Shown here piece after piece: positions 5,342-52,155 of a stretch of DNA of 64,000 bases. Source of the DNA: Candidatus Blochmannia sp. SNP (GTDB lineage: Bacteria; Pseudomonadota; Gammaproteobacteria; Enterobacterales; Enterobacteriaceae); assembly GCF_036549215.1 (NCBI RefSeq), contig NZ_CP144371.1, forward strand, positions 682,001 through 746,000, written 5' to 3'. Under the pieces are notes generated by a model that was not told where the DNA came from, did no database searches, and saw nothing but the letters and a program-made list of their open reading frames with translations. The position numbers and the translations under genes are program-made. Numbering within the stretch: the first letter of the stretch is position 1; the number at the start of each line of letters is the position of its first letter.

Positions 5342-7918
5342 TTATTGAATAAAAACAATCGCATTGTTTACAACATCTAAGGTAATATTTTTACCCGGTA
5401 GTAATTCTCCAGATAAAATTTTTTGAGATAATTCATTTTCAATATGTTGTTGTATAGCGCGCTTTAATGGACGGGCACCATATATTGGATTAAATCCGAC
5501 TTTCGATAAAAATAACAAGACTTTATTAGTAATATTAGTATTAGGATACCCCTTTTCTTCTAAACGATCACATAAATGTTGTAACTGAATTTTAGCAATT
5601 TTGATCAGATGTTCAGCGCTCAGGGGATGAAAGACTACAATTTCGTCTATCCTATTTACAAATTCTGGTCTAAAATTTCGATTAACTATATCTAATATTG
5701 TAATTTTCACTTCTTGATAATTTATGGTTCCAAATTGTTTTTGAATTAAATCTGATCCTAAATTAGATGTCATGATGACGACAGTATTACTGAAATTCAC
5801 TGTTCGTCCATGTCCATCTGTTAATCGTCCGTCATCTAATACTTGTAATAATACATTGAAAATTTCTACATGTGCTTTTTCTATTTCGTCTAATAAAATA
5901 ATAGAATATGGTCGACGACGTATTGCTTCAGTCAAATATCCCCCTGATTCATACCCAACATAACCAGGAGGAGCGCCTAACAATCTTGATACAGAATGTT
6001 TTTCCATAAATTCAGACATATCAATACGAACTATTGCGTTATTAGTATCGAAAAGAAATATAGATAATGCTTTACATAATTCAGTTTTTCCTACTCCAGT
6101 AGGTCCTAAAAACATAAATGAACCGATTGGACGTTTAAGATCAGATAATCCAGAACGACTCCGACGAATGGCGTTAGATACTGCTTGTACTGCTTCATGT
6201 TGTCCAATAACTAATTGATGTAAAGTATCTTCCATATTTAATAATTTATCTTTTTCACTAGCTAACATCCTAGAAACAGGAATACCAGTCCAGCGGGATA
6301 ATACTTCAGCAATTTCTATATCAGTAACACAATTTCGTAGAAGACGTATTTTTTTATTATTATATTGTAATATTGTTGATAGTTTGTTTTCTAATTCAGG
6401 AATTTTACCATACTGCAGTTCAGACATACGAGCTAAATCACCAATACGACGTGCTTGATCAATGGCAATTTTTGCCTGTTCTAAATCAGATTTAATATTT
6501 TGAGCACTAGATAAGTAAATTTTTTCATTTTTCCAGTTTTTTTCAAGAGCAATACAATCTTGTTCTTTTTGCATTAACTCAGTAGTTAATACTTCTAATC
6601 GTTTCATACTAGCATTATCTGATTCTTTTTTTAATGCTTGTTGCTCTAATTTTAGCTGTATAATACGTCGTTCTAATCTATCTAATTCTTCTGGTTTAGA
6701 ATCTATTTGTATACGAATACTAGAAGCCGCTTCGTCAATTAGATCAATGGCTTTATCCGGTAACTGACGATCAGAAATATATCGATATGATAAGTTTGCG
6801 GCAGCGACTATTGCTGGATCAGTAATATGAACATTATGATGTAATTCATAACGTTCTTTTAATCCACGAAGAATAGCTATAGTATCTTCAACACTAGGCT
6901 CAGCAACAAATATTTTTTGGAAACGCCTTTCCAAAGCCGAATCTTGTTCAATATACTTGTTATACTCATCAAGTGTGGTTGCTCCTACACAATGTAATTC
7001 CCCTCTAGCCAATCTTGGTTTAAGCATATTACTTGCATCCATTGCTCCATCAGTTTTACCGGCTCCAACCATAATATGGAGTTCATCAATGAATAAAATA
7101 ATATTGTCCTTTTCTTTAGATATATCATTTAATACGTTTTTTAAGCGTTCTTCAAATTCTCCTCTATATTTTGATCCTGCTAATAATGCCCCCATATCTA
7201 AAGCTAATATACGACTATTTTTTAATCCTTCTGGAACTTCACCATTAATAATACGTTGTGCTAATCCTTCTACAATAGCAGTTTTTCCTACTCCAGGTTT
7301 TCCAATCAGAACAGGATTATTTTTAGTACGTCTCTGTAATACTTGAATAGTACGACGAATTTCTTCGTCTCGACCAATAACAGGATCAAGATTACTTTTT
7401 TCTGCAAATTTAGTTATATCTACAGTAAATTTTTGTAATGCTTGACGTTGAGATTCTGCTTTTTGATCATTAACTAATCGATCATTACGTATGCAATTTA
7501 TTGCTTTTTTTATGTTTTCTATAATCACTCCAGATTTTTTTAACAAATCATTTAATATTTCATCAGATTCAATAACTGCTAAAATAAACATTTCTGATGC
7601 AATGAAAGTATCATTGTATTTCTGTGCTAATTTATCACATACATTTAATATTTTAATTAAACCACGTGAACATTGAATATCTCCTCCAGTACCTTTTACT
7701 TTCGGTAGGTAATTACATGCCTGTTCAACTGATTTAGTTAATTGATAAAGATTAGATCCAGCACGTATCAATAGCTGATATACTGATCCACTTTCTTCTT
7801 TTAAAAAAGCAAGCATCACATGAATAGATTCAACAAATTGATTATCTTTTTTAAGCGCTATAGATTGAGCATCAGAAAGCGCTAATTGAAAATGATGAGT
7901 AAAATGATCTAACCGCAT
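5342..7918 (-). CDS. clpB: ATP-dependent disaggregase ClpB
   Basis: Hexameric AAA+ chaperone that, with DnaK, pulls proteins out of aggregates. About 858 residues, E. coli size (857). Order: N-terminal repeat domain, first ATPase domain with Walker A GKPGVGKT and Walker B ILFIDELH, the long coiled-coil middle domain (about 400-525), and second ATPase domain with GPTGVGKTE and [11 protein letters not shown] chose the start at the MRLD methionine, as in E. coli; an in-frame ATG three codons earlier (7927) lies too close to the GAGGG site. A sigma-32-like promoter lies upstream. The rluD-pgeF-clpB order of E. coli is kept except that pgeF (yfiH) is lost. Confidence 0.97.
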
Positions 7919-7989
7919 AACATCCATCGCCCTCTTATAATAAAATACAACACCAAATCATATTCATTTAATTAACATAAACTATGAAA

Positions 7990-8224: not shown

Positions 8225-9183
8225 TTAGTTTTTTCGTAATATATTTATTAATTTTATTATATCTTGGGGTAAAGGTATAACCCATTTCATTTGCATTTTA
8301 GTAATAGGATGATACAGTTGAAGCGTAGTTGCATGTAATGCTTGTCGATTAAAAATACGCAGATAATCATTGAGTTCATTAGACGCACCTTTAATAGAAT
8401 AAGTTAATTTTCCATACTTCTGATCTCCTAATAATGGGTGATTAATATGAGCCATATGTACACGAATTTGGTGAGTCCTTCCAGTTCCAAGGCGTACTCG
8501 AATTCTGGTATACATACTAAACGCTTCTATAGTATAGTAATACGTAATAGCTGACTTCCCCATAGGGTTTACCGCCATGCGAGTACGATGAACAGCATGT
8601 CTTTTAATTGGTTCATCTATGATTCCTTCATTATGGATAAATCTTCCAAGAACTATAGCTTCATATTCTCTAATAATTTTTTTTTTTTAAATAATTGTAA
8701 TAAGCGATGATACGCAATAACATTTTTAGCCACAACCATTAAACCAGTAGTATCTTTATCCAAACGTTGAACAATACCTGTTCTAAATACTTTGGTAATA
8801 GATGGGTATTTATATAATAAAGCATTCGATATAGTACCTGAATAGTTACCAGCTCCTGGGTGGACTACCATATTCTTCGCTTTATTTATTACTACAATAT
8901 CATTGTCTTCGTATACAATCTCAAGAGGGATATTTTGAGGAACTATACTGCTATTCTTAATATTAATAATATTTTTTATTTCAATAAATTCACCGCCCAT
9001 CATTTTTTTTTTAGGAATAATAATTGTTTGATTATTAACATTCACTTTTTTAGAAAGAATCCAACATTTTATTTGAGAACGTGAATGATTTGGTAGTAAT
9101 TCAGATAGAACACAATCTAATCGTTTTCCAGATTGAGATATCTGTACAACTATAGGTTTTATAGTATAGTATTCAGATGTCAT
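8225..9183 (-). CDS. rluD: 23S rRNA pseudouridine synthase D, frameshifted in a 12-A run (possible pseudogene)
   Basis: RluD makes pseudouridines 1911, 1915 and 1917 in 23S rRNA helix 69. The gene is split into two frames. Residues from the ATG at 9183 give the S4 domain and catalytic motif RLDKDTTG, then run out of frame at a run of 12 A on the minus strand (8677-8688) and stop at 8653. The second frame resumes at once after the run with IIREYEAIVLGRF and continues through RTHQIRVHMAH to the stop at 8225. Thirteen A would restore a protein of the family length with no gap against E. coli RluD (326 aa). The downstream half, including the 74 nt not covered by an ATG-initiated frame, is fully conserved, so the gene may still work through polymerase or ribosome slippage. 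Confidence 0.88.
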
Positions 9184-9308: not shown

Positions 9309-10052
9309 ATGAAACGTGTTCAGCTTCATATAATAATTATGATCATTATTAGTACTATTATAACTTCCTATACCATTGCTTCTGATCGAACTATGAATTG
9401 CTCTGCCTGTAATCTTTATAAACTTGCTCAAGATAAATTATATAACGCTGATTATAAAGGAGCAGTTCAAGATTTAGTAAATTTACAAAATTTAAGATTG
9501 TTTGATCCTTGTCCACAACAAATTTATTTGGATTTAATTTATGCTTATTATAAATTGAATGATTTCAAATTAGCAAATGATTATATAAAACGTTTTTTTA
9601 AATTGTATCCTAATCATAAACATTTCGATTATGTATTATATATGCATGGCGTAGTCAATATGTGTTTAGATGAAGATAACAAGGCATTAATAAAATATCT
9701 AAATATGAATTGGTTTGACCGTAATCCGATGTATGCGTGTACAGCATTCCATAGTTTTATAAAACTTATTCATAAATATCCGAATAGTCAATATTTTGAA
9801 GATACCTACAGACGCTTAATTTTTCTAAAAAATAGAATAGCTGAGTATGAACTTGCTATTGTAAAGTTTTATGCTAAAAGAAATGCTTATATATCAGTGA
9901 TAGCTCGCGTAGAAAAAATGTTATATCGTTTCCCAGATACTCAAGCAACCCGTAAAGCATTGTATTATATGCAACAAGCTTATCAAAATATATACTTGCC
10001 AGATCAAGCTGACAAAGTAGCTAAAATTATTGCTGCTAATCCAATACATTGA
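9309..10052 (+). CDS. bamD: Outer-membrane assembly factor BamD without a lipobox
   Basis: Essential part of the BAM complex that inserts beta-barrel proteins in the outer membrane. The 247-residue product aligns with E. coli BamD (245 aa) through five TPR-like repeats, with LDLIYAYYK, FIKLIHKYPNSQY and the C-terminal QADKVAKIIAANP all clear. The N-terminus has Lys-Arg and a hydrophobic core (residues 8-24), but no lipobox: E. coli LAGC is replaced by TIA-SDRTMNC, and neither Cys31 nor Cys34 fits a signal peptidase II site. TIA-S looks more like a signal peptidase I site. It is divergent from rluD, as in E. coli. A GGAG lies far upstream (16 nt), so the start is only moderately sure. Confidence 0.93.
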   Translation: MKRVQLHIIIMIIISTIITSYTIASDRTMNCSACNLYKLAQDKLYNADYKGAVQDLVNLQNLRLFDPCPQQIYLDLIYAYYKLNDFKLANDYIKRFFKLYPNHKHFDYVLYMHGVVNMCLDEDNKALIKYLNMNWFDRNPMYACTAFHSFIKLIHKYPNSQYFEDTYRRLIFLKNRIAEYELAIVKFYAKRNAYISVIARVEKMLYRFPDTQATRKALYYMQQAYQNIYLPDQADKVAKIIAANPIH

Positions 10053-38960: not shown

Positions 38961-41261
38961 TTATTCGCTTATATCATGAATAACTTGATTTTCTATAATA
39001 TTATTTGTCGATTTCTGATTATATGAAATTATATTTGTTTGATTGGATGATTGATATAATAATTGTTGATCAGTTGTCCATATTGGTAATACTTGATAAC
39101 AAGTGTTTTTGCTATCAGGCAAGATAAAGTTACCACGATTATCTACAGGTATATGTTTAATACCATTAGGTGGTATTAAACATAAAGGAGTAGGTTTTTG
39201 ATGTTCTAAATAAAGACTATATAAAGTTAACGCCCCATTCGTACCTGTTAATTTGGTCTCTCCGTTGTTGTCGCGTCCTATCCAAATCACAGTTACTTCC
39301 TTTCCATCAATTCCAACAAACCAACTATCGCGAAGATCATTAGTAGTGCCAGTTTTAGCAGCCAACTGTGAATAAGGAAATTTTACAGATAAAATATAAG
39401 AAGTTCCTTGTGCTACTACTTGTTGCATTGCATATAATATTAAATAAGCTGCTTGAGGAAAAATAACACGTTCTGTTTTAGGAAAATATTGATATAACAT
39501 CATATTTTCTTCATTCATAACATAACGAACAGACGATAAAGAAGAATGTTGACCACCATTAGCAATAGTTTGAAATTCTTGTGCAACTTCTATAGGTGTC
39601 AGACTGATAGATCCTAAAAGGATTGATGGAAAAGAAGAAATAAAATCAGGTGAAATACCCAATTTTATTAAAATGTCAGAAACAGCGTCTAACCCTATTG
39701 TCATTCCTAAATTAACGGTAGGTATATTGAGAGATTTAATAAATGCATCAATAAGTGTAACTTTGCCTCTAAATTTTCGATCATAATTTTTAGGGGACCA
39801 AATCACTCCATTAGGTTGTTTTAAAGTCATTGGTTCATCAGCAATCCATGTGTTAAGGTGATATTTATTAGGATTACTCAAGGCTGCTAAATAAGTTGCT
39901 GGTTTTGCTAATGAACCAATGGAACGACGAGCATACATAGCACGATTAAATCCATAAAAATGTGGTTCAGATCCGCCCACCATAGCACGTATCTCCCCGC
40001 TAAATCGATCTACTACAACTATAGCTCCTTCCAAATCTTTTATCTTATAAAAACGTCTTAGATTATGAATACCTAATTCCATTGCTTTTTCTGCTGATTT
40101 TTGAGAATTAGGATCTAATGTCGTAAATATCTTTATTCCAGAAAAATCGTTAATTTGATCAATATTTTGTATTTCTTCGTTTACCATTTGTGCAAAAGCA
40201 GGACTTAATATTAATACTTCATCTTTTGATTGTATTCCTAAAGGACGCGCGCTAAGAATAGTATATAACTTTTTGTCAATAATATTTCTATGTACTAATA
40301 ATTTTAGTATTAAATTTCGACGTTCCAATGTTATCTGTGGATTTTTCCAGGGATTGTATAAAGATGCTCCTTTTATCATTCCAACTAACATTGCTTGTTG
40401 ATCCAAACTTAATTCATTTACCGGTCTACCAAAATAATAAAAACTGGCTAAAGGGAACCCGCGAATCTGATCATTTCTATTTTGACCAAAATATATTTCA
40501 TTTAAATATAACTCAAGAATGTGATCTTTACTATATCGATGATCAACAATTAAAGCCATATAGGCTTCATTAAATTTACGCCACAATGATCGGGTATTGT
40601 TCAAAAATAAATTTTTTACTAGTTGCTGCGTTAGAGTACTACCTCCTTGTACAGCGCGTCCAGAAATAACATTAGCTAAAAAAGCACGGCCAATAGAAGA
40701 TATTTTAATGCCATCATGTCGATAAAAATAACGATCCTCAATGGCCAATAACATATCTATTAATATATCTGGAAATTCAGATCTTGGTAAAAGTAACCTT
40801 TGTTGTCCATTAGGGGCATATATAATAGAGATGATTTTGGGATCAAACCGAAATAATCCAAAATTATTTTTTGTATCTTGATTATAAATGCGTAATAATC
40901 TCTCTTGATTAAAAAAAAAGGATGCATGTATTTCTCCTTCTTCTCCGCTTGGAAAGTTAAAAGATCTACGAAATAACTCAATTTCATTATTATGTACGAT
41001 AAATTCCCCTGAATGAGTAATTTTAGATACTTGACGGTACTGTAATGATTCCAATAAATGAATTATATCATTTCTATTGCATGACATATTAGGTTCTACA
41101 TTAATCATACGACCGTAAACAACAGTAGGTAATTGCCAGACTTTTCCGTTAATCCGACTTTGAATTGTTTTATCTAAAAACATTCCATATGATATAATTA
41201 GGATAATAATAAATGCAAAAATGCATATTATAATGTATAAAAAATGTAAAGTTCGTTGCAC
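38961..41261 (-). CDS. mrcB: Penicillin-binding protein 1B
   Basis: Class A bifunctional peptidoglycan synthase. 766 residues, shorter than E. coli PBP1B (844) mainly at both ends. A membrane anchor lies at about 5-27, then the UB2H-like region, the GT51 glycosyltransferase domain with catalytic Glu175 in [12 protein letters not shown] and [12 protein letters not shown], and the transpeptidase domain with S450-x-x-K453 (GSLAKP) and KTGT. The start codon is GTG, with no clear ribosome site. Lipid II precursors come from MurB/MurC/MurG encoded in this window. Confidence 0.95.
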
Positions 41262-43186
41262 AATAATTAAATGACACTTATATAGTAATCAATCCAATAA
41301 AAATTGGAGTTTTTAATACGCATTATAATACTTAGGTAAGTATAATCATCAATTGATCATTTTGATACTGTTTTGTTATTATTATTATTATATGATAATC
41401 GTTATGTAATATATATATATATTTACTATATTTAAGTAATAGTATTGGAAATACTATGATTAATTTACAGTAATTTATATATTTTTTAAATAAGAATTTG
41501 TGTATTTGATTATTAATTTTTAGTAATTAATGAACAGAAATAGAGATATGGAATAAAACATAATAACTATAAACAAGTTATCTTAAATAATAATTAATGC
41601 CTGAATATTTTAAATTTAACCATAATAATATTATTAGTATTAAAACTTTAATTTATGTTTATATAATAATTTTCAAACTTATATTTTTGTACATAGATAC
41701 ATCCCTGATAATTATAAATAATTTTTATTCAATTAGTTTCAATAAGATTGAAAATATAACAAACATTATATCATGATGATAATTTACATTAATACAGAAA
41801 TAAATTGAAACTATATAATAATATTTATGTTTTAGTATAAAAATCAATCAAATTTTTAAATATAAATATATTCTATGCATATTTTATATGATTAACAATT
41901 TTTTATAAGAATATTAAATAATTTTTTTCATAATGTATTGTTTTATATCTCTATGTAATAGAGTAAATAAATAAATATTTCGAATAATGATAAAATAGCT
42001 CTAATACATATTTTAAGGACATATAAAAAATTATATATTAATCCAAATATTATCATTAAATTTAACATTATATTATATTTTTTGTGTTTAAAATAACTAA
42101 ATAACATTTTTATTAAAAACTTTTGTAAAGTAAATTATTGTGCAAATAGAAAAGTTGTGTTTATAAATATTTATTTTGTGGAAAAGTATTTAAATATTTT
42201 GATTATAATCATATTTTAAGTTACTATTTTAATTTATAATTTATTTAAATAATTAAATTTTATGTAGATTTATACAATTAATTAATATTAATCATCAATC
42301 AGATTTAATGTCTAAAATTGTAAATTTTTATAATTATAAACTTGATAAATTTTATATACACATACATGTATTAATTTATATACAATGAAATATACTAATA
42401 TAAAAATATATTTTTATACTGTTTTATATGCATGAAAAACTTATGATTTTATACATCTATATTTCGATTAATATTAAAAATAATTTCAATTCATATTATT
42501 TCTGTATATAAATACTTAGTTTTATATGTACAATCTGAAGTATTTGTATTTATATTCTAATCTATTTTTATATTATTAAGTATATTCTGGCCTATAACAA
42601 TATTTAAGTTTAGTTAAATATTGAATAAAAATATATTATATGTAGTAATCATATAGTTTTAATCAATACAAATGCATAATATGAAAGTACATTCATTTTA
42701 TTATTATTATTAATAATAATAATAATAATATTTTAATGCTGTGTAAAAATGACACAACAATATAAATATAATAATTCTGTAAAGATCTAACTTAACATTA
42801 GAAAATATTCAAGTATTGAATAAATTTTTTGTTATATATAAATTTATAAACAACAAATTGATTTAATATGTAAATTATATTACGATTAAGAAATAATAAA
42901 ATAACAACTAATATGTACTTTTAGTTTATTATTATAAAAATATGCAATGTAATTTAATTTTATGATGAAATAGTCATAAAACTATTTAACAAAAACAACA
43001 TTATTGTTTTGCATATAAAATATATACATAATACTGAAAAAATTAGAATAAAAATAAATCTATTATATATCTTATTACGATTATTAAATACATGATATAT
43101 TATAAGAATTAATATGAAAAAATTAATAAATAATATTTGCATATATTATGTTTACTTATTTGATTTGTTATTTGTTGCTCTTAAAG
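41262..43186. other. 1.9-kb gene-free AT-rich region between mrcB and aceE
   Basis: Extremely AT-rich, dense with stops in all frames. The longest frame (60 codons near 42960-43142, minus) is a low-complexity Ile/Phe-rich string I do not believe. A simple-repeat palindrome of ATT/AAT triplets is at 42698-42725. In E. coli many genes, including hemL, panD and pdhR, lie between mrcB and aceE. No remnant is recognisable by eye. Confidence 0.5.
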
Positions 43187-43227
43187 AGGTGAATATAGAA
43201 TATTTTAACAATATTCTATATTCACCT
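43187..43227. repeat. Perfect 18-bp hairpin upstream of aceE
   Basis: Arms 43187-43204 and 43210-43227 form a perfect stem with a 5-nt loop; the foot AGGTGA/TCACCT is GC-richer than the surroundings. It is 192 nt before aceE. It may be a 5' leader hairpin of the aceEF-lpdA mRNA or the terminator of a vanished gene. No PdhR-type operator is visible. Confidence 0.6.
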
Positions 43228-43419
43228 GAATTACCGAATTATCGTTTTGTACCAAAATTTTTTATTTTTACAGCGGTGAATTAATATATTTTAAAAATAA
43301 TTTTTTATTCGTTATGAACATAATCGTATATAAATAAATTTATATTTATATCATATATATAAATATAATATAAATATAAACAGTATACATATATTCAAAC
43401 ACATTAAGGAAACGCTACA

Positions 43420-46089
43420 ATGTTAGAATGCTTATCTAATGATGTGGATCCAATAGAAACACAAGATTGGTTACAATCTATTTCTTCAGTTATTCAAAAA
43501 GAAGGTGTTAAACGGGCTCAGTTTTTAATAGATCAAATTGTACATGAAGCCCGTAGCAATGGTGTTATTACTTCTAGTAATGAAATAATAACAAATAATT
43601 ATATAAATACTATTCCAGTTCAAGATGAACCAGAATATCCTGGAAATCTAGAAATAGAGCAACATATATGCGCTGTTATTCGTTGGAATGCTATTATGAT
43701 GGTATTGCATGCATCAAAAAAAAATTTAGATTTAGGAGGGCATATCGCTTCTTTTCAATCTTCAGCTACGTTATACGAGGTATGTTTTAATCATTTTTTT
43801 CGTGGACGTAATAAACACGATGGAGGTGATTTAGTGTATTTTCAAGGTCATATATCACCTGGAATATATGCTCGGGCTTTTCTTGAAGGACGATTGCGTG
43901 AGGATCAAATAAATAATTTTCGTCAAGAAATAAAAAACCTAGGACTTCCTTCGTATCCTCATCCAAAATTAATGCCAGAATTTTGGCAATTTCCTACAGT
44001 TTCTATGGGTCTTACTCCAATTAGCGCAATCTATCAAGCAAAATTTTTAAAATACTTAAAAAATAGAAATTTAAAAGATACTACTTTACAGACAGTATAT
44101 GCTTTTTTAGGAGATGGAGAAATGGACGAACCTGAATCTAAAGGAGTTCTTAATATTGCCGCTAGAGAAAAATTGGATAATTTAATTTTTATTATTAATT
44201 GCAATTTACAGCGATTAGATGGTCCAGTAGTAGGCAACGGAAAAATTATCAATGATTTAGAAAATATATTTAAAGGATCAGGTTGGGAAGTAATTAAAGT
44301 TATTTGGGGAAGTAAATGGGATTCTTTGTTACGTAAGGATACTAGCGGTAAGCTTATTAAACTTATGAATGAAACTGTTGATGGAGACTATCAAACATTT
44401 AAATCTAAAAATGGCGCATATGTACGTAAACATTTTTTTGGAAAATATCCAGAAACTAACGCATTAGTGAATGATATGAGTGATTCTGAAATTTGGGCGT
44501 TAGATCGCGGTGGACATGATCCTAAAAAAGTATTTGCTGCTTTAAAAAAAGCTAAGAATAGCTCTGGAAAACCTGTCGTAATATTAGCACATACTATTAA
44601 AGGTTATGGAATGGGTTCTAGTGCTGAAGGAATGAATATTGCGCATCAAATTAAAAAAATTAATATAAACGGAATACGTCATTTTAGAGACAGATTTAAC
44701 CTTAGTCTTATTAAAGATGACCAAATTGAATCTTTGCCTTATTTAACATTTAAAGAAGGTTCTAAGGAATACATATACTTACATGAACAACGCAAAAAAT
44801 TATTTGGATACATTCCAAACAGATTGCAACATTCTACTTATTCATTAAAACTGCCAACATTAAAACATTTCTATTCTTTGTTAACACAACAAAATAAAGA
44901 TATTTCTACTACTCTTGCATTTGTGCGTGCCTTCAATATACTATTGAAGTATGAGTCAATTAAGCATAGATTAGTACCCATTATTGCTGATGAGGCTCGA
45001 ACCTTTGGGATGGAGGGATTATTTCGTCAAATCGGCATTTATAGTTCTATGGGACAACAATATACCCCTCAAGATCATGATGTACTTGCATATTATCGTG
45101 AAGATAAACAAGGGCAGATTTTACAAGAGGGGATTAACGAATTGGGGGCAGCAGCCTCTTGGTTGGCTGCTGCTACTTCATATAGTACTAATGATTTTCC
45201 TATGATCCCATTTTATATTTATTATTCAATGTTTGGTTTCCAAAGAATTGGAGATTTTTTTTGGGCTGCCGCTGATCAACAAGCTCGAGGATTTTTAATT
45301 GGAGGCACATCTGGTCGCACTACCTTAAACGGCGAAGGACTACAACACGCTGACGGCCATAGTCATATTCAGTCATTAACAATTCCTAATTGTATTTCTT
45401 ATGATCCAGCATATGCATACGAAATCGCTGTGATTATACAAGATGGGTTGGTGCGTATGTATGGAAATAAACCAGAAAATATATATTATTATATCACTAC
45501 ATTAAATGAAAAATATCATATGCCAGCAATGCCAGCAGGAGTTGAAGAAGGCATTAGAAAAGGAATTTATAAATTAGAATCTTTATCTGGAGAAAATGGA
45601 AAAATCCAGTTAATGGGATCTGGTGCTATCTTACGTCTCGTTCGTGACGCAGCTCAAATTTTATCTGAAGAATATAATGTAAGTTCTGATGTATACAGCG
45701 TTACTTCTTTTACTGAATTAGCAAGAGATGGGCAAGACTGTGAACGCTGGAACATGTTGCATCCTATGGATATACCCAAAATACCATATATTACTACCGT
45801 GTTAAATAATTTTCCTACTATAGCAGCTACTGATTATATGAAGTTATTTGCAGAACAAATTAGATGTTTTATTCCAAGTAATCATTTTTTTGTTTTAGGT
45901 ACAGATGGATTCGGTCGTTCTGACAGTCGAGAAAATTTAAGACATCATTTTGAAGTAGATACAGGTTATGTAGTTACAGCTGCATTAGCTCAATTAATGA
46001 AAAATGGCCATATTCATGCCAACGTTGTTCTAAATGCTATCAAAATATATGATATTGATCCTGATAAAATTAATCCACGTCTAATATAG
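43420..46089 (+). CDS. aceE: Pyruvate dehydrogenase E1 component
   Basis: Thiamine-diphosphate-dependent decarboxylation of pyruvate, first part of the pyruvate dehydrogenase complex. 889 residues (E. coli 887). The homodimeric E1 form is clear: HIASFQSSATLYEVCFNHFF, the ThDP motif GDGEMDEPES, DEARTFGMEGLFRQIGIY, and HADGHSHI. An AAGGAA site precedes the ATG. It heads aceE-aceF-lpdA; the pdhR repressor gene is absent. Confidence 0.98.
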   Translation: MLECLSNDVDPIETQDWLQSISSVIQKEGVKRAQFLIDQIVHEARSNGVITSSNEIITNNYINTIPVQDEPEYPGNLEIEQHICAVIRWNAIMMVLHASKKNLDLGGHIASFQSSATLYEVCFNHFFRGRNKHDGGDLVYFQGHISPGIYARAFLEGRLREDQINNFRQEIKNLGLPSYPHPKLMPEFWQFPTVSMGLTPISAIYQAKFLKYLKNRNLKDTTLQTVYAFLGDGEMDEPESKGVLNIAAREKLDNLIFIINCNLQRLDGPVVGNGKIINDLENIFKGSGWEVIKVIWGSKWDSLLRKDTSGKLIKLMNETVDGDYQTFKSKNGAYVRKHFFGKYPETNALVNDMSDSEIWALDRGGHDPKKVFAALKKAKNSSGKPVVILAHTIKGYGMGSSAEGMNIAHQIKKININGIRHFRDRFNLSLIKDDQIESLPYLTFKEGSKEYIYLHEQRKKLFGYIPNRLQHSTYSLKLPTLKHFYSLLTQQNKDISTTLAFVRAFNILLKYESIKHRLVPIIADEARTFGMEGLFRQIGIYSSMGQQYTPQDHDVLAYYREDKQGQILQEGINELGAAASWLAAATSYSTNDFPMIPFYIYYSMFGFQRIGDFFWAAADQQARGFLIGGTSGRTTLNGEGLQHADGHSHIQSLTIPNCISYDPAYAYEIAVIIQDGLVRMYGNKPENIYYYITTLNEKYHMPAMPAGVEEGIRKGIYKLESLSGENGKIQLMGSGAILRLVRDAAQILSEEYNVSSDVYSVTSFTELARDGQDCERWNMLHPMDIPKIPYITTVLNNFPTIAATDYMKLFAEQIRCFIPSNHFFVLGTDGFGRSDSRENLRHHFEVDTGYVVTAALAQLMKNGHIHANVVLNAIKIYDIDPDKINPRLI

Positions 46090-47553: not shown

Positions 47554-48981
47554 ATGCATATGCAACTAAAAACTCAAATTCTTGTTTTAGGCGCAGGACC
47601 AGGAGGTTATTCTGCGGCTTTTCGCTGTGCTGATTTAGGAATGGATACCACTATAGTAGAACGTTACCCCATTTTAGGTGGAGTATGTCTTAATGTTGGT
47701 TGTATTCCTTCTAAAACATTATTACATATTGCTAAATTAATTGAAACAAGAAAAAATTTAGATAAATATGGTATTCTTGCATCAGCAGAAACAGATATTG
47801 ATATTGATAAAACACGTTCTTGGAAAGATAAAATTATTACTCAGCTATCAAATAGTTTAAGTACCATGGCAAAAACACGTAATGTTAAAGTAATTAATGG
47901 AATTGGTAAATTTCTTGATAAGAATACTATTCAAGTTGAAAATAATCAAATGACTTTAGAAATAACATTTAATTACGCTATTATAGCAGCAGGATCTCAT
48001 TCTGTTTCCTTACCATTTGTTCCTAATGATAATCGTATTTGGAATTCAACTGATGCTCTATCTTTACAATCAATACCTAAGCGTTTACTGATTGTAGGTT
48101 CTGGAGCTGTAGGATTAGAAATGGCAACAATATATCATGCATTTGGATCAGAAATTGATATAGTAGAAGTATATAATCAAATTATACCAATTTTAGATGA
48201 AGATGTTATTAATCCTTTTTCTAAAATAATAAGTAAGAATATTAATTTAATTTTAAATACCACAGTAAATATAGTAGAGGCTAAAAAAGATGGTGTTTAT
48301 GTTACTATGGAAAATAATCAAACTTCATTAAAAAATATTAAACGTTATGATGTATTATTAGTGGCAATTGGACGTGTTCCGAATGGCAATATGTTGAACA
48401 TTGAAAACACAGGGGTCAATGTAGATAAATACGGTTTTATTCCTGTAGATCAACAAATGCGTACTAATATAAAACACATTTTTGCTATTGGTGATATTAT
48501 TGGACATCCAATGTTAGCGCATAAAAGTATTCATGAAGGACATGTAGCAGCAGAAGTTATTGCTGGTAAAAAACGTTATTTTAATCCAATAATAATTCCA
48601 TCTATTATATATACTAATCCAGAGATAGCATGGGTTGGCTATACTGAAAAAGATGCACAAGCAAAAAATATAGATTATAAAGTTACTATTTTCCCTTGGA
48701 TGGCTTCAGGCCGAGCAATTACTGAAGATTGCAAAGAAGGTATGACTAAATTGATTTTCGATAAAAAAACAAACAGAATTATTGGAGGATCTATTTTAGG
48801 CACGCATGCTAGTGAAATATTAGGAGAGGTTGCATTAGCTATTGAAATGGGGTGTGATGCAGAAGATATTATTCTAACTATTCATGCTCATCCAACTTTA
48901 TATGAATCAATAGCATCAGCAGCATCTATTTATAATGGATCGATTACTGATCTGCCTAATATAAAAACACAAAACCAATAA
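47554..48981 (+). CDS. lpdA: Dihydrolipoamide dehydrogenase (E3)
   Basis: FAD enzyme that reoxidises lipoyl groups of pyruvate and 2-oxoglutarate dehydrogenases. 475 residues (E. coli 474). FAD motif LGAGPGGYSAAF (12-23), redox disulfide C45/C50 in GGVCLNVGCIPSK, NAD motif VGSGAVGLEMA, and the active-site HAHPTLYES. The second in-frame ATG (47560) is better spaced from GAGAG and aligns with the E. coli start, so two residues may be surplus. Third gene of the operon after a 160-nt spacer. Confidence 0.97.
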   Translation: MHMQLKTQILVLGAGPGGYSAAFRCADLGMDTTIVERYPILGGVCLNVGCIPSKTLLHIAKLIETRKNLDKYGILASAETDIDIDKTRSWKDKIITQLSNSLSTMAKTRNVKVINGIGKFLDKNTIQVENNQMTLEITFNYAIIAAGSHSVSLPFVPNDNRIWNSTDALSLQSIPKRLLIVGSGAVGLEMATIYHAFGSEIDIVEVYNQIIPILDEDVINPFSKIISKNINLILNTTVNIVEAKKDGVYVTMENNQTSLKNIKRYDVLLVAIGRVPNGNMLNIENTGVNVDKYGFIPVDQQMRTNIKHIFAIGDIIGHPMLAHKSIHEGHVAAEVIAGKKRYFNPIIIPSIIYTNPEIAWVGYTEKDAQAKNIDYKVTIFPWMASGRAITEDCKEGMTKLIFDKKTNRIIGGSILGTHASEILGEVALAIEMGCDAEDIILTIHAHPTLYESIASAASIYNGSITDLPNIKTQNQ

Positions 48982-50930
48982 ATTTTATATGATTATAAAT
49001 AAAGTTCTAAATTGATTAATTTAAAAATAATACTACATTGGTATATAGTTTATTCCAACTTATAAAGTATATAAGTGTTAATATTTAACATATTATACAA
49101 TTTATAAAAATCAAATATAATAATTACATTTATTTATATTTTTAAATATGTAGCGATATATATCGCTACATATTTATGTTATTGATGTGATATAGTTTAT
49201 TAGATGAAAATAAAATGTTTAAAATAATAATATCGTCACTCAAATAGCGTTCATTCATTAAACATCATAAATTATATACAATCACATAACTTATGGTTGT
49301 GAGGTGTATTCACATTATACTTATTAAGTATTTAGGACATAATTGATTTGTAACTATTAATTAATTATAATTATAAATTTAATATTTTATTATTTGAAAT
49401 ATTTAATCTGTTATAAAAACAGAAATTTATTCTAATACTAAAACTAGTTATATTATCATAAGTGTGTAATTTACAAATTAGTCTAAAAATATTTTTTATA
49501 TATTTTAATAATAACAAAATACTAACCATATTGCCAATATCTTACAATATTAGAAACAAATTAAAAAATTTGGTATATCTAAATTTCATATATGTTTTAA
49601 TCATTCAATTTAATTTAGAATAATTAGATATATTTTAATTCAATCTAAATATAGATATTAATTATATTTAAAATCTATTAATAACAATAAAATGTATCAT
49701 AATAATTTTAAAATATGATATCTATTTTATAGTTTTAAATAAATATTTAAGAAAAATACTTACTGTATAAATTAATAATAACTCTTATTTTATTTATATT
49801 GAGAATTATTATTATATCCGTATAATTCTTGTTGTCTATAACAACCTAAAAATAACTATTAAATCAATAGTTTTTTGTGTTATTAGTATTATGTTATCTA
49901 ATAACACAGACCGATTTATATTTAATAATAGTATGACAACATATAGTGATAATTATTTACCATTTATTGTTTAATCTAAAGTACGTTTTACAATACAATT
50001 ATAATATCAACTATATTCTATATATATCTAAAAAATAAATATGTTAATAAGTATTTTAAAAGCATAAAAGTTATCAAACTTAACAATAAAAAATAATTTA
50101 AATTATTAAACATATATATAGGCATAATTTTTTGATTACTATCACTATAATATTCTTTAATTAAAATCACTAAATAATTTTATTTTTAATTAATAAAATG
50201 AAGGTTCATTATGAAAATATTTTCCAAATGATTGCTAATATTAATATGTTTTATAGCAATTATTTTTGTTATAAATATAATTAATTACTTATATAGTATA
50301 TATCATCAATAAACTAATATATCTGCATATATTTAAAAAGATAAATATTAATTTGTTTTAAATTAAATTAAAAATTATTCACATATCAAATATTTTTATA
50401 AGTATAGAACATAACATATAATACTTATTTCATAATAATTAATTCATTTATCACTAAAAAGTATATTACTATAATAAAAATAAGTATATTAAGCAATAAA
50501 AATATATTTGCATGTTTATGCATTTTTATATAAACATGACAATATAGTAATTTGTGATTTTAATAATATAAAGTTATTATTTTTATCTCAATTATAAATT
50601 TTTTATTATTTTCTGAGAATACTAGTATCTGAAATTTATTCATCTATAGAAATCGCTACAAATTATAATAATTATTAAATATTTATTAATAAATATAGCT
50701 AAATAATTTTGGTATATAATTTTAATTAAGATAATAAAAATAAAATAATAGAGAATTTGTTATGAATTAAATTTTCGATAGTTAGATCAATATATTCACA
50801 ATACTAAATAGATATATCAATATCTTTAATTTCACTATAAACAATTGGTTATAGATGAACAATTTATTTTTTGGAACAAATAATAACCCCTCCATATTAC
50901 AGTTGTTATAGATAATAATATTTAAAGATT
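48982..50930. other. 1.9-kb gene-free AT-rich region between lpdA and folK
   Basis: No credible open frame in either strand. E. coli has acnB, speDE, panBCD and others in this interval. It contains the palindrome 49143-49176 and, at 49802-49909, a run of neighbouring stem-loops: an 8-bp stem (49802-49829), a 7-bp stem followed by six T (about 49853-49872) and an 11-bp stem (49877-49909). These could mark a small RNA or a decayed gene; hairpins of this size are also expected by chance here. Confidence 0.45.
49143..49176. terminator. 34-nt perfect palindrome downstream of lpdA
   Basis: A perfect palindrome with 17-nt arms and a GC-richer core (AGCGATAT/ATATCGCT), 162 nt after the lpdA stop. 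Probable end of the aceE-aceF-lpdA transcript; no clear T-run. Confidence 0.45.
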
Positions 50931-51422
50931 TTATTTTTTCCAAAAATCTAAACCATTTTTAGGAACAGTTTTAGCAATATCTGTTATAATTTTTCCATTA
51001 GGAAAAACTAAATGATTATCTAATTCAATTAATGGATAAATTATAAATTCTCGATTACATATGTCATAATGCGGTATTATCAATTCAGAAGTATATATAT
51101 TATGTTTTCCAAATAATAAAATATCTAAATCTAGTGTGCGTGACTGCCATAACAGAGAATTATGTAACCGAACACGTCCTTGTTTTTTTTCAATATATTG
51201 GATATGACTTAATAATGATTTTGGAGAGAGATTAGTATCTAATATTATTATTGCATTTAGAAAATCAGGCTGATTTTTCTGCCCCAATGGCCGGCTACAA
51301 TAATAGGATGAAAAAGCAATAAGTTTGGTCATTGGGAGCTTAGAAAGAGACCACACAGCTTTATCAGCTTGTTTTTTAGGATTTAACATATTACTGCCTA
51401 GTCCTATCCAAACACGTTCCAT
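50931..51422 (-). CDS. folK: 6-hydroxymethyl-7,8-dihydropterin pyrophosphokinase
   Basis: Folate synthesis step that activates the pterin before joining to p-aminobenzoate. 163 residues (E. coli 159). WIGLGSNM, YYCSRPLGQKNQPDFLNAI, and the magnesium-binding SRTLDLDILLFG are typical. The E. coli neighbour pcnB (poly(A) polymerase) and gluQ, between folK and dksA, are missing; only 265 nt without coding remain at 51423-51687. Confidence 0.97.
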   Translation of the reverse strand: MERVWIGLGSNMLNPKKQADKAVWSLSKLPMTKLIAFSSYYCSRPLGQKNQPDFLNAIIILDTNLSPKSLLSHIQYIEKKQGRVRLHNSLLWQSRTLDLDILLFGKHNIYTSELIIPHYDICNREFIIYPLIELDNHLVFPNGKIITDIAKTVPKNGLDFWKK

Positions 51423-51687
51423 TTGATTATGTATCCTAACTAATTAACTACAAAATCATCAGTCTTTTGATTTTTATAAAAATTTACATATAATTAAAAT
51501 TAAAATATTTTATAAATTTTTATATAAATACATGCTTATACACAAAACAATCAACAAATCTTAATCAAACTAATTATCATAACAAAAATTATATATAAAT
51601 CATTAAAAAATTGATTTTTAATTATATCTTCATGTCATAATATCATTATATCATCTAATAAAAAATTGATTGCTATACTATGATAAT

Positions 51688-52155
51688 TTATCCGGTCATT
51701 TGTTTTTCTTTAATTTCTTCTAAAGTTTTGCAATCAATACATAAATCAGCCGTTGGTCGAGCTTCCAATCTTCGGATTCCGATCTCTACATCACATGAAG
51801 CACAAAATCCAAATTCATTTGTACCTATTTTTTTTAAAGTTTTTTCAATTTTTTCAATAAGTTTACGTTCTCTATCTCGATTGCGTAATTTAATATTAAA
51901 TTCTTCTTCTTGTGCGGCTCTATCTACTGGATCTGGAAAATTGACAGATTCTTGATTTTGTACACATAATGTAGAAGACCCTAAATCATGTTTAAGTTGG
52001 TTTTTCCACGTTTCGAGAATGCGTTTAAAATGTAATAGTTGATCAGAACTCATATATTCTTCATTAGGTTTGCGTTGATATGGCGTAACTCCGGCAATTA
52101 TTAATACATTTAAAGAAGAACACTTGTTACTATGGGTTGATGACTTTGTCGGCAT
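51688..52155 (-). CDS. dksA: RNA polymerase-binding transcription factor DksA
   Basis: Works with ppGpp in the secondary channel of RNA polymerase to control rRNA and amino acid promoters. 155 residues (E. coli 151). The coiled-coil tip acidic residues are in [14 protein letters not shown], and the zinc site has four cysteines, CASC and CIDC. AGGAG lies 7 nt before the ATG. One of few global regulators retained, with csrA. A weak 8-bp hairpin near 51604-51624 follows it. Confidence 0.97.

What the first reader, a model, noticed from the sequence alone, without database searches (positions are those of the whole stretch)
8677..8688. rluD is interrupted by a 12-A tract where 13 A would restore the frame
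Seen: the two rluD frames meet exactly at a run of 12 A on the coding strand; adding one A gives a protein that aligns with E. coli RluD without a gap, and the second half is fully conserved in the shifted frame with no other lesion. Known: in Buchnera and Blochmannia, genes split at poly(A) tracts have been reported to be rescued by RNA polymerase slippage. Inference: rluD is probably still expressed as a mixed population of transcripts rather than being dead.
Basis: partly seen in the sequence, partly recalled or inferred. Interest (0 to 1): 0.75.

Follow-up and report, generated by a model that had tools for sequence, protein, structure and literature searches.

The report
Split rluD kept alive by slippage
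In an ant's bacterial partner a ribosome-modifying gene is broken by a missing letter in a run of A's, yet its closest relatives share the break and evolution still protects both halves, so the gene is probably still used rather than dead as recently published.

Summary
Confirmed. A run of 12 A (coding strand, 8677-8688) separates two rluD frames. The N half reads 7 codons past the run to a stop; the C frame opens at the run and has no other lesion. The genome is very probably Blochmanniella vicinus BSEQ, whose 2025 paper calls rluD a non-functional remnant. My evidence opposes that. The two closest held genomes are also off-frame at this run (A12, A11), a database protein from a fourth lineage ends the same way, and the other 11 of 14 Blochmannia genomes are open here. 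On the clade's branches the C half evolves at omega 0.14, far from neutral (p=1.7e-13; 0 of 100 neutral simulations as low), not significantly above background (p=0.058). The same genome carries hisH split at A11; a histidine gene of Blochmannia is the reported case of slippage-corrected transcripts. A12 and A11 need corrections of different size or sign, which fits RNA slippage better than one ribosomal shift. No RNA or protein data exist here, so slippage is inferred. Side result: five other reduced genera show rluD split at another lysine run, possibly partly assembly error. New member of a known kind that contradicts a published call.

The parts
8677..8688 (-). A12 run on the coding strand where the two rluD frames meet
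8653..9183 (-). N half of RluD (S4 domain + first half of PseudoU_synth_2), 176 aa; TAG 21 nt after the run
8225..8686 (-). C half of RluD in the other frame (second half of PseudoU_synth_2), open 153 codons, stop at 8225-8227
8687..8689 (-). TAA in the C frame at the 5' edge of the run, bounds the frame change upstream
8653..8655 (-). TAG of the N frame, bounds the frame change downstream
8749..8766 (-). RLDKDT motif (catalytic aspartate motif; role recalled), in the N half
   Evidence: sequence; coordinates counted by hand from it
9003..9012 (-). second long run of rluD, A10 in frame (PKKKM); the place where rluD is split in five other genera

Best explanation
rluD is still a working gene whose A run is one A short. 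SHOWN: the other bases that break up this stretch in the 11 open relatives (e.g. A7-G-A5, 13 nt) are absent in this clade, leaving a pure A run, 12 long in two genomes and 11 in a third, all out of frame; both halves keep evolving as protein. INFERRED: a pure in-frame run formed first on the clade's stem and then contracted; RNA polymerase slips on it, giving mRNAs of mixed length, a minority in frame, and these make enough full-length RluD to modify helix 69 of 23S rRNA. It is slippage-dependent expression of an rRNA modification enzyme, the same class as Blochmannia hisH.
For: Off-frame in 3 of 3 held genomes of a clade with support 1.0 (G000,(G007,G010)). A fourth lineage, protein P0121, ends in the same LFKKKKLLENMKP-type tail and falls in the clade with support 0.997; its C half was not found. 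P0122 and P0240, on one 40,559-base contig, equal G010's N and C pieces, so G010's split is in a second record. No full-length RluD closer than 82.5% to this N half among the 239 fetched proteins of two searches. C-half omega on clade branches 0.142 vs background 0.080 (difference p=0.058), vs 1 p=1.7e-13; N half 0.095 vs 0.126; controls clpB 0.119 vs 0.079 (p=0.062) and bamD 0.143 vs 0.173. 0 of 100 datasets simulated at omega 1 gave an estimate <=0.142, lowest 0.518. A neutral simulation predicts about 3-6 stops per lineage in the C half; 0 of 400 replicates at each of two base compositions left all three stop-free, observed 0 stops. Of the first 32 codons after the run 28 give the same residue in all three genomes, as expected if reading arrives from upstream. 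hisH is split at exactly A11 in 10 of 14 genomes including this one, clade omega downstream 0.071; a review states that slippage corrects 12-50% of transcripts across aphid-symbiont cell-wall genes and a histidine gene of an ant endosymbiont (passages of PMC5009743). Poly-A cassettes in E. coli gave net frameshifting of 63% (A11), 40% (A9), 10% (A7) (PMC3711429 section 24). The RluD target sequence in 23S rRNA is intact in 14 of 14 genomes.
Against: No RNA or peptide data. G010 (A11) needs loss of one or gain of two A; [quoted passage not shown] The C-half omega is 1.8-fold above background at p=0.058, so mild relaxation is possible; on single terminal branches the test against 1 is weaker (G000 0.068 p=0.006; G007 0.227 p=0.027; G010 0.189 p=0.017). 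The selection argument assumes the shift is as old as the clade, not several recent events. rluD deletions are viable in E. coli with the B-type RF2 (PMC5373646 passages), so loss could be survivable.
Confidence: 0.7

Rival explanations
1. Rescue is by -1 ribosomal frameshifting on the A run rather than by RNA polymerase.
For: A_AAA_AAA is a known slippery heptamer, and the cassette data for A7-A11 do not separate the two mechanisms. It needs no RNA heterogeneity.
Against: A12 needs -1 but G010's A11 needs +1 or -2, so one ribosomal mechanism does not serve both. 80-nt stretches downstream fold no better than shuffles (z 0.37, 0.40, -0.75; G007's stretch starts 15 nt after the run, G010's includes its last two A). 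No Shine-Dalgarno-like stimulator seen by eye just upstream.
Confidence: 0.15
2. rluD is a pseudogene, as the BSEQ paper says (non-functional remnant, rescued by host or other genes).
For: PMC12779916 lists rluD among putatively inactivated genes and assumes rescue (section 14). rluD deletion is viable in some E. coli backgrounds. The clade's C-half omega is slightly raised (p=0.058).
Against: Off-frame in 3 genomes plus P0121, with both halves of the 3 genomes under strong purifying selection and no further stop. The other three genes on that paper's list (hisH, lptG, ybiS) are also split at A11, A10 and A9 runs with both pieces stop-free, i.e. one class of lesion.
Confidence: 0.08
3. The run is hypermutable: in-frame alleles exist in the symbiont population and the assemblies record off-frame majorities or recent hits.
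For: The length differs between lineages (12, 12, 11). Long pure A runs slip in replication.
Against: All 3 held genomes of the clade and P0121 are off-frame. The comparable hisH run is exactly 11 in 10 of 10 genomes with the split and the in-frame A10 of rluD is exactly 10 in the same 10 genomes, so such runs change slowly in this genus. No reads were examined.
Confidence: 0.1
4. Sequencing or assembly error: the true run is in frame.
For: Homopolymers are a classic error source; the record is one base longer than the published length (783,877 vs 783,876).
Against: BSEQ was assembled from Illumina reads at over 5000x. Separate records agree on an off-frame run in the clade. In the same assembly the A11 in tamA, the A11 in recB and the A13 in ubiH are in frame: 3 of the 5 coding runs of 11 or more; the 2 off-frame are hisH and rluD.
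Confidence: 0.04
5. Two-chain enzyme: the C half is started internally and pairs with the N half.
For: The C frame has an ATG at 8578.
Against: That ATG is an ordinary RluD residue (MAVNPMG; E. coli MAVHPMG), and starting there would leave the conserved stretch after the run (28 of 32 residues identical, the last of them this Met) untranslated. The split cuts one catalytic domain in the middle (PF00849 1-73 and 72-152).
Confidence: 0.03

Closest known systems
hisH of Blochmannia (poly-A frameshift with slippage-corrected transcripts; Tamas et al. [quoted passage not shown] that it is hisH is recalled)
   Same: Run of 11 A, one position shorter than the G+A11 of the open G011 hisH; both halves conserved; split shared by many species
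   Different: hisH split spans 10 of 14 genomes, rluD 3 of 14; rluD has no transcript data; rluD run length varies (12/11)
Homopolymer-frameshifted Blochmannia genes such as erfK (ybiS), ytfM (tamA), dnaX, dnaG, dxs, pth, ribF (PMC3017870, section 10 and passages read)
   Same: Single indel in a poly-A/T run, otherwise in frame, treated there as possibly slippage-corrected
   Different: rluD does not occur in that paper's main text (0 occurrences); rRNA modification enzyme
Programmed transcriptional slippage in Thermus thermophilus dnaX (passages of PMC3711429)
   Same: Poly-A run, transcription realignment gives two frames
   Different: There two subunits are made in a used ratio; here the truncated product should be useless (inference)
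-1 ribosomal frameshifting on A_AAA_AAA/A_AAA_AAG
   Same: Same slippery letters, same net shift for A12
   Different: No stimulators found, direction not conserved in G010

Membership tests
RluD (23S rRNA pseudouridine synthase) | S4 domain plus PseudoU_synth_2, best match to the RluD equivalog | tested here: met
   only across two frames, each piece alone is below the equivalog cut-off (203.7 and 167.4 vs 351 bits)
RluD (23S rRNA pseudouridine synthase) | Catalytic motif RLDKDT present and H69 target sequence conserved | tested here: met
   meaning of motif and target recalled
Slippage-rescued homopolymer-frameshifted symbiont genes | Single frame change inside a long A/T run, no other lesion | tested here: met
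Slippage-rescued homopolymer-frameshifted symbiont genes | Frameshift conserved across lineages | tested here: met
   3 of 3 held clade genomes plus P0121 (N half only)
Slippage-rescued homopolymer-frameshifted symbiont genes | Purifying selection downstream of the shift | tested here: met
   omega 0.142, p vs 1 = 1.7e-13; assumes the shift predates the clade's split
Slippage-rescued homopolymer-frameshifted symbiont genes | Transcripts of mixed run length including in-frame ones | not testable with these tools
   needs cDNA
Slippage-rescued homopolymer-frameshifted symbiont genes | Full-length protein or enzyme product present | not testable with these tools
   needs proteomics or pseudouridine mapping
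Programmed -1 ribosomal frameshifting | Slippery heptamer in phase | tested here: met
   four AAA codons in the N frame
Programmed -1 ribosomal frameshifting | Stimulatory structure downstream | tested here: not met
   z 0.37, 0.40, -0.75 on 80-nt stretches not placed identically
Programmed -1 ribosomal frameshifting | Same shift direction conserved in relatives | tested here: not met
   G010 has A11

The most novel reading that the evidence does not exclude
rluD is a recurrently slippage-dependent gene in reduced, mostly symbiont-like genomes: lysine-coding A runs at two places in RluD (PKKK after the S4 domain, LFKKKK inside the catalytic domain) go out of frame again and again in unrelated genera while the reading frames stay whole, because low-level slippage supplies enough of this enzyme and selection hardly sees the lost A.
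Probability: 0.25. Interest if true: 0.65.

Novelty: new member of a known kind. Interest (0 to 1): 0.48.

Why it matters
If true, a published gene-loss call (rluD in BSEQ, with an assumed host rescue of rRNA modification) is wrong, and by the same sign hisH, lptG and ybiS of that list may be too. Sister lineages with A12 and A11 at one site offer a natural test of whether slippage, rather than a directional ribosomal shift, does the rescue, and pseudouridines in 23S rRNA would give a direct read-out of whether enough enzyme is made.

Tried and rejected
Tried with little result: a genome-contig scan for named relatives returned 63 loci, none titled Blochmannia (the tool warns that very near records may be left out). 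The search for the C half of P0121's lineage found only G010's (P0240) near this clade among 52 hits. In the genus checks of three of the five split genera, G084 and G087 had no congener held and G047's congener G177 is open and lacks the run, so those splits are uncorroborated; G021 and G117 were not checked this way. G057 has several breaks without A runs at 49% completeness and was left out. G088 and G106 show no N-terminal part and were not counted as splits.

Considered and rejected: that the A12 is improbable in itself (39 of 100 shuffles have one); that RNA structure drives a shift.

Rows dropped: ML tests used 10 of 14 genomes (G011, G003, G009, G012 left out as too distant) and alignment columns with at most 2 gaps; ybiS used 9. 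The PKKK survey covered 53 non-Blochmannia genomes of the 149 (those up to 2.4 Mb with an RluD match, plus G098 and G175) and 14 Blochmannia; 3 of 67 did not cover the site, of which G117 was read by eye. My codon-model code is home-made, checked only by simulation. Tests that did not reject omega 1: ybiS on the G000 branch, up p=0.26 and down p=0.15; hisH up on the G000 branch p=0.066.

Full report
WHAT IS THERE. On the minus strand of the window, rluD lies between clpB (5342-7927, same strand) and the divergent bamD (9309-10052). It is in two frames. The N half (8653-9183) matches RluD profile positions 11-167; the C half matches positions 199-314 from its first ATG and, from its open-frame start, E. 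coli RluD residues 164-313. They meet at exactly 12 A (8677-8688). The C frame has a TAA at the 5' edge of the run and the N frame a TAG 21 nt after it, so the frame change is confined to the run and the next few codons. The cut falls in the middle of the single catalytic domain (PF00849 1-73 | 72-152), so neither half should work alone (inference).

WHOSE GENOME. The window's genome is 783,877 bases. The complete genome of Blochmanniella vicinus 'Sequoia' (BSEQ, CP144371) is given as 783,876 bases and its paper lists rluD, hisH, lptG and ybiS as putatively inactivated (PMC12779916; sections 6, 7, 14, 16 and passages read). The match rests on length and these genes, not on a name. That paper assumes rluD loss is rescued by the host or other genes. 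Other genomes matched by length to printed sizes: G006 B. pennsylvanicus, G011 B. floridanus, G009 B. turneri, G012 B. obliquus, G003 B. vafra and G001 B. ocreatus.

RELATIVES. Of 14 Blochmannia genomes, 3 are off-frame here: G000 A12, G007 A12, G010 A11; 11 are open through the site. In those 11 the stretch between the flanking codons is 18 nt and holds other bases among the A's (for instance A7-G-A5); it is 17, 17 and 16 in the three. The three form one clade (support 1.0). P0121, a 176-aa protein on a 1587-base contig of source 'lgn', is a further lineage with the same ending; its C half was not found. P0122 and P0240, on one contig, equal G010's two pieces. Two protein searches listed no full-length RluD near this clade (120 hits listed of 7999 scored, and 120 of 1782). 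The simplest history is: the interruptions were lost on the stem, giving a pure run, the run lost one A, and in G010 a second. That order is inferred.

SELECTION. A home-made branch codon model on 10 genomes gives, for the branches within the clade, omega 0.142 in the C half (148 codons; background 0.080; p 0.058 for a difference; p 1.7e-13 against 1) and 0.095 in the N half (176 codons; background 0.126). Neighbouring intact genes behave alike: clpB 0.119 vs 0.079 (p 0.062), bamD 0.143 vs 0.173. In 100 data sets simulated with omega 1 the estimate never fell below 0.518. Neutral decay would have put about 3-6 stops into each lineage's C half; there are none. Single branches: G000 0.068, G007 0.227, G010 0.189, p against 1 of 0.006, 0.027 and 0.017. 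Constraint right after the run (28 of 32 residues identical in all three) argues that reading comes from upstream through the run. All this assumes the shift is as old as the clade.

COMPANION GENES. Runs of at least 11 A/T in this genome: 6, of which 5 are coding and one lies between ubiE and ubiB; tamA A11, recB A11 and ubiH A13 are in frame, hisH A11 and rluD A12 are not. hisH is split at exactly A11 in 10 of 14 genomes; G011 keeps a G before the A11 and is open. lptG is split at A10 in this genome; no other of the 14 is split there, though G009's match breaks near the 3' end. ybiS is split at A9 here; of 12 genomes with its domain 10 have frames of at most 194 aa, against 238 in G005 and 349 in G003. 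tamA seems split at A9 near its start; the small upstream piece has no family hit. So all four genes that the BSEQ paper's text names as inactivated are frame changes at A9-A12 runs with both pieces stop-free. Downstream omegas: hisH 0.071, ybiS 0.153 (clade branches), lptG 0.170 (G000 branch, p 0.004 against 1); ybiS on the G000 branch alone does not reject 1 (p 0.15).

MECHANISM. Known for this class: a review passage states that slippage on poly-A runs corrects 12-50% of transcripts, across aphid-symbiont cell-wall genes and a histidine gene of an ant endosymbiont (PMC5009743); A11/A9/A7 cassettes in E. coli gave 63/40/10% net shift (PMC3711429 section 24); in Buchnera 151 of 157 transcript insertions were in homopolymers (PMC5574713 passages). 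A12 needs one added A, the favoured direction; G010's A11 needs one removed or two added. Slippage can give both; one ribosomal shift cannot. Against: the same Buchnera study saw no frame restored, and nothing was measured in this organism. RluD may be needed only weakly: its deletion is viable in E. coli with B-type RF2, though severe in K-12 (PMC5373646 passages). Its 23S target is unchanged in 14 of 14 genomes.

WIDER PATTERN. In 149 family genomes, five (G021, G084, G087, G047, G117; 0.5-2.0 Mb, five genera) have rluD in two frames that meet at A9 in the other lysine run, PKKK, just after the S4 domain. Of 53 non-Blochmannia genomes examined, 51 could be read at that site; 14 have at least 9 A there: 6 at A10 in frame, 3 at A9 in frame, 5 at A9 off-frame (G117 by eye). 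The five are scattered on an RluD tree with open neighbours. G047's congener is open. The sequencing platform of these genomes is unknown, so A10 read as A9 is a live alternative.

IN PRINT. Searches for rluD with Blochmannia (4 papers) and rluD with frameshift and endosymbiont (2 papers) showed no paper treating rluD as slippage-rescued; of these I read only PMC12779916 (the sections named above), the others as listings. The main texts of PMC3017870, PMC4389277 and PMC9251289 do not contain 'rluD'. Supplements (Figure S5 of the BSEQ paper), Tamas 2008 and Wernegreen 2010 were not read. Manthey 2022 assembled its Blochmannia from Illumina shotgun reads (passages); that G007 and G010 come from it is inferred from size only.

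VERDICT. Real, shared by its clade, and very probably not a dead gene; slippage is the likeliest rescue; a new member of a known kind that contradicts a 2025 gene-loss call.

Noticed in passing
L184, L186, L187, L188, L189 (G021, G084, G087, G047, G117): rluD in two frames meeting at A9 in the PKKK run in five other reduced genera, downstream frames whole (259-268 aa); run length could partly be sequencing error.
   Followed up: partly
L170 (G000:C1 around 91.6-92.7 kb): lptG is split at an A10 run, at that place only in this genome among 14; the youngest of the set, a good test of early decay against rescue.
   Followed up: partly
L108 (G000:C1:31900-36000): tamA seems split at A9 near its start and carries an in-frame A11 further on.
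   Followed up: partly
L112 (G000:C1 623435-623447): A13 run in ubiH kept in frame (424-codon frame), the longest A/T run found in the genome.
   Followed up: no
whole record: The held genome is 783,877 bases, the paper prints 783,876; a one-base difference not explained.
   Followed up: no
window 40000-44000 and 48000-52000: Local G+C of 0.22 against 0.24-0.31 elsewhere, with few long ORFs; possible eroded genes or long spacers.
   Followed up: no
L190, L191 (G088, G106): RluD seems to lack the N-terminal S4 part in two very small genomes.
   Followed up: no
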